Made by a program: the position numbers and the translations under genes. Positions 24,494-27,891 of a stretch of DNA of 64,000 nucleotides are shown piece by piece. The notes beneath the pieces were generated by a model. It was not told the origin of the DNA. It saw only the letters and a program-made list of their open reading frames with translations, and ran no database searches. Every line of letters starts with the position of its first letter. Position 1 is the stretch's first letter. The stretch is from NCBI RefSeq assembly GCF_002176815.1, contig NZ_CP021648.1, positions 186,001 to 250,000 on the forward strand, read 5' to 3'. The stretch is from Acidovorax sp. T1. GTDB taxonomy: Bacteria > Pseudomonadota > Gammaproteobacteria > Burkholderiales > Burkholderiaceae_C.

Positions 24494-24506
24494 ACGCGCT
24501 TGTAAC

Positions 24507-24531
24507 TGTCGTTTTCAGAAGGCGACTGCAC
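24507..24531 (+). repeat. Tn402-type terminal inverted repeat (IRt end)
   Basis: Begins TGTCGTTTTCAGAAGGCGAC. A second, subterminal copy of the TniA-binding type motif (TTCAGTAGTCGTATGCAC) lies at 24583-24600, as in Tn402 and Tn5053 ends. Preceded by GTAAC. Confidence 0.9.
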
Positions 24532-24710
24532 CGGTTCATTGGGTTGGCCGTACCGAGTGCATAGGACTGCTGACACGACCTGTTCAGTAGTCGTATGCAC
24601 GAGCCGCCGCGAGGGGATGGGATTGCTCAGGAGTCCCCTGCACGATGCTGTCTTGCGCCGTCACTTTACTAACCATAAACACCCTTTGTATGCCTTAGAC
24701 AGAATTACGG

Positions 24711-24781
24711 GTTAAGTGACAATTTTTGACGACCGGCACGTTCTGGCTCACACTGTCACATAATCGAACGTATATGTGACA
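24711..24781. other. Putative res site for the TniR-type resolvase
   Basis: An inverted repeat, TGTCACATA - 10 nt - TATGTGACA (24754-24781), with related TGAC/GTCA motifs upstream (GTGACA near 24716), lies just before the resolvase start. This matches a serine-resolvase res region used to resolve cointegrates. Confidence 0.7.
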
Positions 24782-24790
24782 GGCGAAGAG

Positions 24791-25414
24791 ATGTTGATCG
24801 GCTATATGCGGGTGTCGAAAGCGGACGGATCCCAATCCACCAATTTGCAGCGCGATGCGCTCATCGGCGCCGGCGTGAGTCCTGCCCATCTCTACGAGGA
24901 TCTGGCATCAGGCCGACGCGATGATCGCCCAGGGTTGGCTGCTTGCCTGAAGGCGCTTCGTGAAGGGGATACGCTGATCGTATGGAAGCTCGATCGGCTC
25001 GGCCGCGATCTGCGCCACCTGATCAATACCGTGCACGACCTGACTGCGCGTAGCGTGGGACTGAAGGTCCTGACCGGTCACGGTGCAGCGGTCGACACGA
25101 CGACTGCCGCCGGCAAGCTTGTGTTCGGCATTTTTGCTGCGCTGGCAGAGTTCGAGCGGGAGTTGATTTCCGAGCGAACGGTCGCCGGGCTTGTCTCGGC
25201 GCGCGCTCGCGGCAGGAAAGGGGGGCGCCCCTTCAAGATGACCGCCGCCAAGCTACGCCTGGCGATGGCCAGCATGGGGCAACCGGAAACCAAGGTGGGC
25301 GATCTCTGCGAAGAACTGGGGATTACCCGGCAGACGCTCTACCGGCATGTGTCACCCAAGGGAGAGCTGCGACCAGACGGCGTAAAGCTGCTCTCCCGAG
25401 GTTCAGCCGCATAG
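24791..25414 (+). CDS. tniR: Serine resolvase, TniR/TniC type
   Basis: A 207-residue site-specific recombinase that resolves cointegrates formed by replicative transposition. The catalytic Ser is in GYMRVSKADGSQ near the N-terminus. The arginine-bearing WKLDRLGRDLRHL and GIFAALAEFERELISER follow, and a C-terminal helix-turn-helix is seen at LCEELGITRQTLYRHV. This resembles the resolvase of Tn402-class elements. ATG 24791 is preferred to GTG 24776 because the latter overlaps the res palindrome. It converges on the cassette, as in Tn402. Confidence 0.9.
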   Translation: MLIGYMRVSKADGSQSTNLQRDALIGAGVSPAHLYEDLASGRRDDRPGLAACLKALREGDTLIVWKLDRLGRDLRHLINTVHDLTARSVGLKVLTGHGAAVDTTTAAGKLVFGIFAALAEFERELISERTVAGLVSARARGRKGGRPFKMTAAKLRLAMASMGQPETKVGDLCEELGITRQTLYRHVSPKGELRPDGVKLLSRGSAA

Positions 25415-25507
25415 TAGCGGCGACCTGGAACGAGGCTGTTCAGTGCGGCAACGATCCGATTGCCGGTGTCGACCCGATGCAGCCGTCCAGCTTTGACGGA
25501 AGCTGTC

Positions 25508-25567
25508 GTTCAACGCCTGAATTAAGCCGCGCCGCGAAGCGGCGTCGGCTTGAATGAATTGTTAGAT
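25508..25567 (-). other. attC recombination site of the qac cassette
   Basis: About 60 bp. Read on the minus strand it runs from the inverse core ATCTAAC through a strong imperfect hairpin (AGCCGACGCCGC / GCGGCGCGGCTT) to the core GTTGAAC (GTTRRRY). This is the aadA/qac-type attC. It lies just after the qac stop, so the cassette is complete at this end. Confidence 0.9.
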
Positions 25568-25577
25568 GCCAACCCGG

Positions 25578-25910
25578 TCAATGTGCGCTGACCTTGGATA
25601 GCAGGTTTAGAACGGCGACGCCACTGACGATAAGTCCCATGCCAATGAACGCCCAGAAGTCTAGTTTTTGGCCATGGAAAATCCAAGCAATAGCTGCCAC
25701 AAGCACGATGCCAAGCCCAGCCCATACAGCGTAAGCAATACCGACCGGAATGGACTTGAGCGCGAGAGACAAGAAATAGAACGCAAGCCCGTAGCCAGCC
25801 ACAACTACAACGGAAGGAACTAACCTAGTGAATCCATGGCTAGACTTCAGTGCGGAAGTTGCGATGACCTCGCCAAAGATTGCAACAGCCAGAAATATCC
25901 AGTTCTTCAC
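25578..25910 (-). CDS. qacF: Small multidrug resistance efflux protein, QacF/QacH type
   Basis: A 110-residue four-helix inner-membrane proton antiporter that exports quaternary ammonium biocides and cationic dyes. The essential Glu14 is in IFGEVIATSALK, and GLAFYFLSLALKSIPVGIAY and YAVWAGLGIVLVAAIAW are family signatures; the whole protein reads like QacF/QacH/QacL rather than QacE-delta1. GTG start with AGAGGAG seven bases before it. The symbol names the closest group I recognise, not a tested allele. It is an integron cassette facing the resolvase gene; without intI no Pc promoter is present. Confidence 0.9.
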   Translation of the reverse strand: MKNWIFLAVAIFGEVIATSALKSSHGFTRLVPSVVVVAGYGLAFYFLSLALKSIPVGIAYAVWAGLGIVLVAAIAWIFHGQKLDFWAFIGMGLIVSGVAVLNLLSKVSAH

Positions 25911-26024
25911 GCGCAATCTCCTCTACGGTATGAAGGAGAAATTGTAGTGGCTATGAGTTGCCAAAAACAGTCTTGCGGCTATCGATTTTCTGTGAGCATA
26001 CGCAACGCCAAATCTGGCATCTAA

Positions 26025-26464
26025 ATTTATTTGGCGAAATTTGTTCAATTGTACTTGACGCTCACACAAAAAATCTCTATCATATATAAAAAACACGAAG
26101 CATCATAGGTTTATCTAGTTTAGGGAAAGAGAAAATAACTTTTTCATGAGTTGAACAACAGCGGCAAACTATTAAAAAGCTAAAAAGAGGAGTTGACTTG
26201 TAAAAATTTTGATTGCACGGCCTTATCTATGATAGGCGCGACAAAATGATAGGAGGCATTCACCTTGTTTAGCAGCACAGGCATAAGATTTGATTTACAT
26301 TTCTGATGCAATTATAATGGTGGGCAAGAATGGCCGAAATACATAATAAACAGTCATTCCTCAATCCAGTCTTCAATTGCGGCCGCCTTCGTTTATTTTT
26401 GGCTTCCGCCACCTAGATGATGTTATTTATTCAAAAAATTTTTAGAAAAAAAGGAGAAATGATT
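26025..26464 (+). promoter_or_regulatory. AT-rich leader with putative promoter
   Basis: Base composition drops sharply at 26025, directly at the cassette boundary. A good sigma-70 type promoter, TTGACG - 17 bp - TATCAT, lies at 26055-26083 and reads toward the reductase gene. AGGAGG near 26251 is followed by a 13-codon frame starting TTG at 26265, too short to judge. No other gene is visible in these 440 bp. Confidence 0.55.
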
Positions 26465-27328
26465 ATGTCAATTGCGGTTACAGGTGCTACTGGTCAACTC
26501 GGTGGGCTTGTGATTCAACATTTGCTCAAAAAAGTTCCCGCCAGTCAAATCATTGCCATCGTGCGTAATGTTGAAAAAGCCTCTACTCTTGCCGATCAAG
26601 GCGTGGAAGTTCGCCATGGCGACTATAATCAACCGGAATCTCTTCAAAAGGCTTTTGCAGGTGTCTCCAAGCTGCTCTTTATCTCAGGTCCGCATTATGA
26701 TAATACGCTTCTTATCGTTCAACATGCAAATGTCGTAAAAGCTGCCAGAGATGCGGGAGTCAAACATATTGCTTACACAGGATATGCCTTTGCTGAGGAA
26801 TCAATAATTCCCCTTGCACACGTACATTTAGCAACGGAATATGCCATCCGTACGACCAATATCCCGTATACTTTCCTGCGTAATGCCTTATATACGGACT
26901 TTTTTGTAAATGAGGGGCTGCGCGCATCCATAGAGTCTGGAGCAATTGTTACGAATGCGGGAAGCGGGATCGTTAATTCAGTAACACGCAATGAACTTGC
27001 TTTGGCTGCCGCAACGGTTCTTACAGAGGAAGGGCATGAAAACAAAACGTATAACCTTGTTTCCAATCAACCGTGGACCTTTGATGAACTTGCCCAAATT
27101 CTCTCCGAGGTTTCCGGCAAAAAAGTCGTGCATCAGCCTGTCTCATTCGAAGAAGAGAAAAATTTCCTCGTAAACGCTGGTGTCCCTGAGCCGTTTGCTG
27201 AAATTACGGCAGCGATCTATGACGCGATTTCCAAAGGAGAAGCGTCCAAAACATCAGATGATCTGCAAAAACTGATCGGATCCTTGACCCCTCTGAAGGA
27301 AACCGTAAAACAAGCCCTGAAAATGTAA
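26465..27328 (+). CDS. NmrA-like NAD(P)-binding reductase of Firmicutes type
   Basis: A 287-residue atypical short-chain dehydrogenase. The dinucleotide-binding motif GATGQLGG is at residues 7-14, followed by an NmrA/QorB-like pattern (HGDYNQPESLQKAF, then HIAYTGYAFAEE, YTFLRNALYTDFF and TYNLVSNQPWTFDELA). Relatives include NAD(P)H:quinone reductase type 2 and NmrA-like sensors; the actual substrate is unknown. Codon use is AT-rich with a strong AAGGAG site eight bases before ATG 26465, quite unlike neighbours and typical of Bacillus-like genomes. It is followed by a terminator, so it came with its own expression unit. Confidence 0.8.
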   Translation: MSIAVTGATGQLGGLVIQHLLKKVPASQIIAIVRNVEKASTLADQGVEVRHGDYNQPESLQKAFAGVSKLLFISGPHYDNTLLIVQHANVVKAARDAGVKHIAYTGYAFAEESIIPLAHVHLATEYAIRTTNIPYTFLRNALYTDFFVNEGLRASIESGAIVTNAGSGIVNSVTRNELALAAATVLTEEGHENKTYNLVSNQPWTFDELAQILSEVSGKKVVHQPVSFEEEKNFLVNAGVPEPFAEITAAIYDAISKGEASKTSDDLQKLIGSLTPLKETVKQALKM

Positions 27329-27436
27329 GAATTGACCAAATGACATAAAATGAAAAAACAGAACATCCAATGACTGCAAACTCGTGACCTGCTTTATCTT
27401 AGTTCGAAAATAAGCCCTGTCACGCAGACAGACATT

Positions 27437-27486
27437 AACAGCCTGAGACCTAAAATTACATAAGGACTCAGGCTGTTTTATTTCTT
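27437..27486 (+). terminator. Rho-independent terminator after the reductase gene
   Basis: A 9-bp stem (CAGCCTGAG / CTCAGGCTG) with a 19-nt loop is followed by TTTTATTTCTTTT. Stem and T tract are typical of low-GC Gram-positive terminators. Confidence 0.85.
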
Positions 27487-27840
27487 TTGATCACGTTGGC
27501 GGATTTAAAAACGAAACGAGAGTATATCATCTTTTACAAAAGGGGGTTTAGGGCGACAGTTCTGCCGCATAACATCGGGATGTCGGATAACATGTTCTGC
27601 AACCTTCTGTTTAGAATAAGAAATATCGCGCAAGGCAAGATAACAACGCAGGTAAAGCAGCAGCTGGCATGGTGTGTGGTCTGATCGATTCCGGGCACAG
27701 GCGTATAGCATATCCTCCCGCCGGGGTGGCCGCTATCCGGAGCGCTTGATGACCGGCCGCTCCTGGCCGCCTGCCGCCCGTCATTCCCTGATGGGTTCAA
27801 CCCCCTTTGCTGCTGTAGTGCATTCGGCTTCTGACATTTG
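27487..27840. other. Junction region between foreign block and IRi
   Basis: AT-rich sequence continues to about 27670, then GC rises. From about 27780 the minus strand resembles the outer 5' end of class 1 integrons next to IRi, including a subterminal TniA-type motif at 27818-27836 (GTGCATTCGGCTTCTGACA). Short open frames on both strands have no recognisable features. No intI sequence is seen. Confidence 0.55.
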
Positions 27841-27865
27841 GCGCAGCCGTCTTCTGAAAACGACA
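27841..27865 (-). repeat. Tn402-type terminal inverted repeat (IRi end)
   Basis: The minus strand reads TGTCGTTTTCAGAAGACGGC and then TGCGC, differing from the other end at three of 25 positions. It is followed directly by the target duplication GTAAC. Confidence 0.92.
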
Positions 27866-27891
27866 GTAACAATATGCGAAAGGGAGCGCTT

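What the first reader, a model, noticed from the sequence alone, without database searches (positions are those of the whole stretch)
24502..27870. Complete non-autonomous Tn402-like transposon with a perfect 5-bp target duplication
Both 25-bp ends (22/25 matching), subterminal TniA-type motifs on each side and GTAAC on both flanks show a genuine transposition event. The element has a resolvase gene, res site and a cassette with attC, but none of tniA, tniB, tniQ or intI. Known miniature Tn402-like elements mobilise integrons in trans; this one carries a resolvase and a foreign cargo, a layout I do not recognise.
Basis: partly seen in the sequence, partly recalled or inferred. Interest (0 to 1): 0.85.

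Follow-up and report, generated by a model that had tools for sequence, protein, structure and literature searches.

The report
Transposase-less Tn402-type transposon with dye-reductase cargo
A 3.4-kb jumping element that has lost its own transposase but kept its ends and its resolvase has landed in front of an ammonium-transporter gene, carrying a disinfectant pump and a dye-detoxifying enzyme whose DNA matches Gram-positive bacteria; close relatives of it exist on plasmids.

Summary
Window 24507-27865 is a complete 3,359-bp element with 25-bp ends (22/25) and a perfect GTAAC duplication. The closest relative examined has the empty site with one GTAAC. The element holds res-tniR, a qacF cassette with attC and an attI-like remnant; tblastn finds no TniA, TniB, TniQ or IntI1 in it. 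The unnamed cargo is triphenylmethane reductase, tmr, in a 1.52-kb block 99.93% identical to Ureibacillus DNA.

The layout is not unique. Four other elements, on three plasmids and one genome contig, share the backbone and also lack those genes; each has its own 5-bp duplication. Two of them differ by 1 base in 2,072 yet have different duplications. Published tni-defective Tn5053-family elements are a precedent (PMC7765201, passages).

A possible helper exists in the strain: an 11.6-kb mer transposon on contig C4, the only place in the genome where TniA, TniB or TniQ was found.

Best reading: a chimaeric non-autonomous Tn402/Tn5053-family transposon, moved in trans, resolved in cis. It separates amt from a conserved sigma54-like motif. 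New member of a known kind; moderate interest.

The parts
24502..24506 (.). left copy of 5-bp target duplication GTAAC
   Evidence: a single copy in relative G033
24507..24531 (+). left 25-bp terminal inverted repeat (IRt side)
24507..24690 (+). left arm running into the res region; complete (98.4-100%) in 7 of 208 matching plasmid records
24660..24790 (+). res region upstream of tniR (limits approximate; homologous to DNA upstream of tniR in complete elements)
24791..25414 (+). tniR, serine resolvase; 0 of 624 bases differ from tniR of the complete tniABQR transposon on pPUV-6
25512..26024 (-). qacF gene cassette; 100% identical 513-bp copy in same-genus genome G027 among similar attC sites
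25512..25566 (-). attC of the qacF cassette (imperfect hairpin)
25578..25910 (-). qacF, SMR quaternary-ammonium efflux pump (above the NCBIfam QacL/F cut-off; GTG start is my reading)
26023..27542 (+). Bacillota-type block, 1,520 bp, 99.93% to Ureibacillus massiliensis; G+C 0.41 against 0.635 for the window (shares 2 bp with the cassette at an ambiguous joint)
26023..26067 (+). DNA that directly follows istB of an IS21-family element in Ureibacillus (and, at 82%, in a Brevibacillus plasmid): probable IS right end
26055..26083 (+). promoter-like TTGACG-17-TATCAT; first hexamer in the IS-derived end, second in the tmr leader
   Evidence: consensus match only; 6 sites found, mean 3.2 in shuffles
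26465..27328 (+). tmr, triphenylmethane reductase, 287 aa (PDB 2VRB/2JL1, 613 and 610 bits)
27437..27477 (+). inverted repeat followed by a T-rich tract, possible tmr terminator (not among the hits of the terminator scan)
27547..27750 (-). attI-like remnant whose core site was lost at the cargo junction
27751..27865 (-). conserved IRi arm, 115 bp, shared with pPUV-6, pB3, pYKBL037
27841..27865 (-). right 25-bp terminal inverted repeat (IRi side)
27866..27870 (.). right copy of GTAAC

Best explanation
The element is a non-autonomous Tn402/Tn5053-family ('res site hunter') transposon. Its backbone is left arm, res, tniR, cargo site, IRi arm; tniABQ are gone. TniABQ supplied in trans, plausibly by the mer transposon on contig C4 of this strain or by another family member on a passing plasmid, act on the two 25-bp ends and insert the element replicatively, making the 5-bp duplication. 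The cointegrate is then resolved by the element's own res-TniR. qacF entered as a gene cassette by integron recombination with an integrase in trans. The tmr block entered by imprecise, non-integron recombination at the attI/first-cassette junction. Shown: ends, duplication, empty site, gene content, mosaic junctions, sister elements at different sites, a complete set of tni genes in the genome. Inferred: that C4 was the actual helper, that TniR resolves this element, the order of cargo entry, and expression of the cargo.
For: Ends and duplication. Empty site with a single GTAAC in G033, and an uninterrupted motif-GTAAC-start-codon stretch in 15 of 19 relative loci. Four sister elements have no tblastn match to TniA, TniB, TniQ or IntI1 and each has a perfect duplication of its own: pMRCP1333 CGTAG, pYKBR041 AAAGG, pYKBL037 CGCGG, G279 CCCGC. 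The last two are one element (1 difference in 2,072 bp) at two sites. tniR is identical over 624 bases to that of a complete tniABQR element on pPUV-6. C4 carries an 11,563-bp mer element with ATATG on both flanks and open frames for TniA, TniB, TniQ, TniR, and is the only place in the genome with TniA, TniB or TniQ. The published division of labour is TniABQ in trans, res-TniR in cis (PMC7765201, passages). The tmr block matches Ureibacillus at 99.93% over 1,520 bp, IS-derived end included.
Against: The insertion is not beside a resolvase gene other than its own tniR: the next Resolvase-domain match on C1 is about 730 kb away, whereas the family prefers res sites. No second copy of the whole 3,359-bp element was found in this genome, in 60 relatives or in the plasmid collection, where no record has a place covering 80% of it, so mobility of the present form is inferred from its sisters. 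The left arm is not the arm of pPUV-6 or C4, so deletion within one known parent is not enough; at least two parents recombined. The C4 ends are not identical to the element's ends.
Confidence: 0.86

Rival explanations
1. An autonomous Tn402-like transposon inserted here first and lost tniABQ (and gained tmr) in place, so that the element never moved in its present form.
For: tniR and the IRi arm are those of an autonomous element. The duplication alone cannot tell whether the element moved before or after losing tniABQ, and only one copy of the whole element is known.
Against: The same left arm-res-tniR joint is present at independent sites with different duplications, so the transposase-less backbone itself moves. 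The left arm does not match that of pPUV-6, whose tniR is identical.
Confidence: 0.08
2. An integron-type unit: tmr and qacF are both gene cassettes and the element is a class 1 integron that lost its integrase.
For: qacF has attC; attI-like remnant; cassette orientation as in Tn402 integrons; an intI homologue (56-57%) with an open frame lies elsewhere in the chromosome.
Against: No attC was seen at tmr; its block begins with IS-derived DNA and is continuous in Ureibacillus. The attI core is lost at its junction. No IntI1 match inside. The attI segment is attI1-like over about 50 bp only.
Confidence: 0.04
3. A mosaic brought together by homologous recombination between resident mobile elements, with GTAAC on both sides by chance.
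For: The element is clearly mosaic and the genome is rich in insertion sequences.
Against: The relative's empty site equals exact removal of the element plus one GTAAC copy; a chance 5-bp repeat exactly at both ends is about 1 in 1,000 (4 to the power 5).
Confidence: 0.02

Closest known systems
tniR-only elements on pMRCP1333 (AP025276), pYKBR041 (LC623925), pYKBL037 (LC623919) and genome G279:C17
   Same: Left arm, res, tniR and IRi arm; no TniA, TniB, TniQ or IntI1 match between the ends; own 5-bp duplications; pMRCP1333 and pYKBR041 share the attI-like segment at 100%
   Different: Cargo: IMP-1, aac(6')-31, qacF; aac(6')-31 and two hypothetical genes; or Qac-pB8 plus TetR. None of the four has tmr between its ends (pYKBL037 has tmr elsewhere). 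They sit on plasmids or a 19.7-kb contig, the window element on a 4.1-Mb contig. The authors of pYKBL037 tabulate a 'Transposon (blaAER, qacL)' (PMC9499019, passages).
Complete Tn402/Tn5053-family transposons (R751 Tn402, Tn5053 recalled; pPUV-6 and contig C4 examined)
   Same: 25-bp ends, res-tniR; pPUV-6 tniR identical; C4 has a 5-bp duplication
   Different: They carry tniABQ; their left arms differ from this one; cargo differs.
Tn6606 and relatives, tni-defective Tn5053-family elements (PMC7765201, passages read)
   Same: Ends and 5-bp repeats without a tni module, transposition attributed to tni in trans
   Different: They keep tniA' and tniR' remnants (tniR' inverted) and mer fragments and sit in or near res sites; ours has an intact tniR and is not at a res site.
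tni-defective class 1 integrons and MITE-flanked integron units (recalled; MITE review PMC10969869, passages)
   Same: Non-autonomous, thought to move in trans, carry cassettes
   Different: They carry intI1 and (recalled) usually lack res-tniR; here intI is absent and res-tniR present.
tmr of Listeria plasmids and crystallised triphenylmethane reductase (PDB 2VRB/2JL1)
   Same: Same protein; block 99.9% to Listeria plasmids over element positions 1567-3041
   Different: On the Listeria plasmid opened it lies near bcrABC and a glyoxalase gene, not in a Tn402-like element.

Membership tests
Tn402/Tn5053 family transposon | 25-bp terminal repeats TGTCRTTTTCAGAAG... | tested here: met
Tn402/Tn5053 family transposon | 5-bp target duplication on insertion | tested here: met
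   GTAAC; single copy at the empty site of G033
Tn402/Tn5053 family transposon | res-tniR | tested here: met
   the res sub-sites were not mapped
Tn402/Tn5053 family transposon | tniABQ (autonomy) | tested here: not met
   no TniA, TniB or TniQ match in the element; in the genome only on C4. Hence filed as a non-autonomous derivative, not as a complete member
Tn402/Tn5053 family transposon | preference for a res site or resolvase gene as target | tested here: not met
   nearest other Resolvase-domain match on C1 is about 730 kb away; non-res insertions are known but inefficient (PMC7765201)
Class 1 integron | intI1 with attI1 | tested here: not met
   no IntI1 match in the element; attI1 likeness limited to about 50 bp
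Class 1 integron | gene cassette with attC | tested here: met
   qacF cassette by homology and hairpin; a strict generic core pattern gave 0 hits
Triphenylmethane reductase | sequence match to the crystallised enzyme over its length | tested here: met
   613 bits to 2VRB over 287 of 287 residues
Triphenylmethane reductase | reduction of crystal violet or malachite green | not testable with these tools
   needs an enzyme assay

The most novel reading that the evidence does not exclude
A distinct, self-sustaining lineage of 'resolvase-only' Tn402-type transposons exists: selection keeps the res-TniR module (which must resolve cointegrates) while the transposase is dispensed with and borrowed from resident Tn5053/Tn402 elements, and the freed space is a cargo bay open both to gene cassettes and to DNA from other phyla.
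Probability: 0.45. Interest if true: 0.5.

Novelty: new member of a known kind. Interest (0 to 1): 0.4.

Why it matters
It indicates that Tn402-type elements without a transposase but with an intact resolvase keep moving, and can carry a biocide-tolerance gene of Bacillota type into a proteobacterial chromosome. The group (same left arm, different cargoes and duplications) is a natural test of whether res-tniR is retained by selection. It also links qac and dye-detoxification genes on one unit and shows an insertion that probably rewires nitrogen regulation of amt.

Tried and rejected
Looked for a second copy of the whole element in the own genome and in 60 relatives (23 of 60 with some match, none full length but the window's own): none. 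Plasmid records covering 80% of the element: 0 of 3,956 matching records. Left arm searched in 399 family genomes (11 with a match, G000 counted; full length at 100% only in G000 and G279), 369 class genomes (only G000) and 5,426 E. coli genomes (6 with a partial match, none covering 80%). I considered tmr as a cassette: no attC seen, so rejected. I tested whether the right segment hides an intI start: no IntI-like frame; apart from its three 100% plasmid copies its best match is 71% to Thauera plasmid pTha01, where I see no attI core, so its origin is unresolved. I expected a GCTCA duplication around the Tn402-type element beside tmr in pYKBL037; it is not there. A generic attC core pattern gave 0 hits in the window. 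The sigma54-like pattern with up to 2 substitutions occurs 58 times (27 and 31 by strand) in the 64-kb window, so the match alone means little and the argument rests on conservation. The paper on TniA-binding repeats was not held. Literature: ten searches; of eight papers I read only the passages returned, of the rest only listings. None of these showed me tmr in a Tn402-like element; papers not held are not covered.
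Full report
1. Observation. The element proper is 24507-27865 (3,359 bp), the ends agree at 22 of 25 bases and GTAAC stands on both sides. A genome scan with the end pattern, up to 3 mismatches, gives 6 places, and 0 for the reversed control. In the closest relative examined (G033, 96% identical over the 1,001-base right-flank query) the same locus reads ...GCGCTTGTAACAATATGCG with one GTAAC and neither the element nor the neighbouring IS21-family element. A script that looked for a promoter motif followed by GTAACAA printed an uninterrupted stretch up to the amt start codon in 15 of 19 relative loci. 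Of the other 4, L032 and L034 also show both flanks adjoining, L030 matches there only in part, and L040 was not in that comparison.

2. Anatomy. From the left: a roughly 150-bp arm, the res region, tniR (24791-25414, + strand), a qacF cassette in the opposite orientation with attC next to tniR, a block with tmr on the + strand, an attI-like remnant and the IRi arm. This corresponds to Tn402 (recalled order) read backwards, with tniABQ missing between IRt and res. tblastn with TniA, TniB, TniQ of C4 and of pPUV-6, TniR of C4 and IntI1 finds only TniR in the window element (88.7% over 203 aa); all positive controls ring. By blastn (element positions counted from 24502) positions 6 to about 1000 match pYKBR041 at 99.8% (to 1069), pYKBL037 at 99.1% and pMRCP1333 at 93.7% (to 1015). 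Positions 1011-1531 match pMRCP1333 at 99.4%. Positions 3046-3364 match pMRCP1333 and pYKBR041 at 100%.

3. Cargo. The third gene encodes a 287-aa NmrA-type protein that matches triphenylmethane reductase 2VRB with 613 bits over its full length; plasmid pMBUI8 annotates the gene as triphenylmethane reductase. In the plasmid collection 20 records match the block: 15 Listeria, two uncultured, and one each of Delftia, Salmonella and Acinetobacter. In the genome collection 22 loci encode relatives, 20 of them Bacillota, the others Stutzerimonas and a Bdellovibrionaceae MAG. Ureibacillus massiliensis holds element positions 1522-3041 at 99.93%. There the first bases of the block lie 7 bp behind an IstB gene (PF01695, 251 bits), itself behind an IstA-like gene, and a Brevibacillus plasmid has an 82% match over 45 bp directly behind an annotated istB: the block starts with what is probably the right end of an IS21-family element. 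Its G+C is 41% against 63.5% in the window. I conclude that it is Bacillota DNA. No attC was seen in it, and at its two junctions a few bases of the attI core present in pMRCP1333 and pYKBR041 are gone, so it came in by imprecise recombination, not as a cassette. The IS-derived end supplies the -35-like hexamer of a TTGACG-17-TATCAT site before tmr; 6 promoter-like sites were found against 3.2 (sd 1.8) in shuffles, so this is a suggestion only.

4. Family. The same layout recurs. pMRCP1333: 3,365 bp with CGTAG on both flanks. pYKBR041: 2,612 bp with AAAGG. pYKBL037: 2,072 bp with CGCGG. Genome G279 contig C17: 2,072 bp with CCCGC. In all four, tblastn finds TniR but no TniA, TniB, TniQ or IntI1. 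The last two differ at 1 of 2,072 bases: one element, two sites, two duplications. The 184-bp left arm is complete in 7 of 208 matching plasmid records, and in 3 more its first 130 bp stop at the same place; in pB3 (on the res side) and the Delftia plasmid (on the arm side) another Tn402-type end abuts that point. The third (MN366358) was not opened. Other carriers of the arm (pN260-3, pRSB223, p4782-IMP, an Enterobacter asburiae plasmid) show no second end in inverted orientation in the stretch fetched and were not counted as complete elements; pYKBL037 also has the arm on a second, larger element with strAB and a class 1 integron that has no matching duplication.

5. Origin and mechanism. 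tniR is identical, 0 of 624 bases different, to tniR of a complete tniABQR transposon with an efflux cargo on pPUV-6, and the IRi arm is 97.4% alike; the left arm is not the pPUV-6 or C4 arm. So the module is a chimaera of at least two parents, not a plain deletion of a known one. In this strain an 11,563-bp mer transposon on contig C4 (56,357 bp; not typed as a plasmid) has ATATG on both flanks and open frames for TniA (Mu-transpos_C above cut-off, rve below), TniB, TniQ and TniR; TniA, TniB and TniQ were found nowhere else in the genome. One of its ends is about 120 bp from a Resolvase-domain gene, the usual target of the family; the window element is not in such a place. From PMC7765201 (passages): TniABQ act in trans, res-TniR in cis, 5-bp repeats are made, res sites are preferred and non-res insertion is inefficient; tni-defective elements with repeats (Tn6606 group) are explained by tni in trans. 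I infer the same here. What is not shown is that C4 itself was the helper.

6. Consequence of the insertion. A TGGCATGGCTTGTGCA motif with sigma54 spacing (24478-24493) lies just before the insertion and recurs at the same place before amt in 15 of 19 relative loci. A loose version of the pattern occurs 58 times in the window, so only its conserved place speaks for it. The element, inserted at GTAAC near the expected start of transcription, separates this site from amt (start codon near 27892). The sigma54 assignment is my reading from the recalled consensus, not a tool result.

7. Novelty. The finding is real and complete, but it is a new member of a known kind: a tni-defective Tn402/Tn5053-family transposon. 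What I did not find in print (ten searches; listings, and passages of eight papers) is tmr in such an element, or a treatment of the tniR-only elements as a group. The most novel reading is that res-tniR is kept by selection in a transposase-free lineage; the recurrence supports it, but four of the five complete copies are too alike in tniR to allow a selection test here.

Noticed in passing
window 24478-24506 and 27866-27900: Conserved sigma54-like motif directly upstream of the insertion; the element separates it from amt (ammonium transporter).
   Followed up: partly
window about 21789-24395: An IS21-family element (istA, istB) next to the transposon, also absent from relative G033; 22 of 37 rve matches in the genome (its own included) have the same score, so it looks highly multicopy.
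   Followed up: partly
window about 23490-23545: A CCA/CAC repeat run near the end of the istA frame encodes a threonine-rich tail.
   Followed up: no
L115 (G000:C1:2242628-2243608): Open-framed integron integrase, 56-57% to IntI1, with two weak attC-like matches (77-78% over 37-47 bp) about 1.4-1.7 kb away: perhaps a chromosomal integron in the same genome.
   Followed up: partly
L117 (G027:C1:4206-4718): Same-genus genome with a 100% identical qacF cassette among several similar attC sites.
   Followed up: partly
L008 7153-9485 (pYKBL037): A second Tn402-type end with the same left arm abuts the tmr block inside its IS-derived end; its other end (L068 19378) shows no matching duplication.
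   Followed up: partly
L061, L113; H223-H225: In pB3 and a Delftia plasmid another Tn402-type end abuts position 130/131 of the left arm, close to res, as expected of a res-site hunter; MN366358 stops at the same position but was not opened.
   Followed up: partly
L110 6615-7484 (pB8): The TetR plus Qac-pB8 pair that two sister elements carry has a counterpart on pB8, there described in print as part of a Tn3/Tn501-like transposon (PMC4245530, PMC3590792, passages).
   Followed up: no
L014 8074 (G000:C3:42073): A further Tn402-type end on contig C3 with 73% similarity to the left arm, about 220 bp from a Resolvase-domain gene.
   Followed up: no
L112 (p4782-IMP): Same left arm followed by a diverged resolvase gene and dps-katG on a Pseudomonas aeruginosa plasmid.
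   Followed up: no
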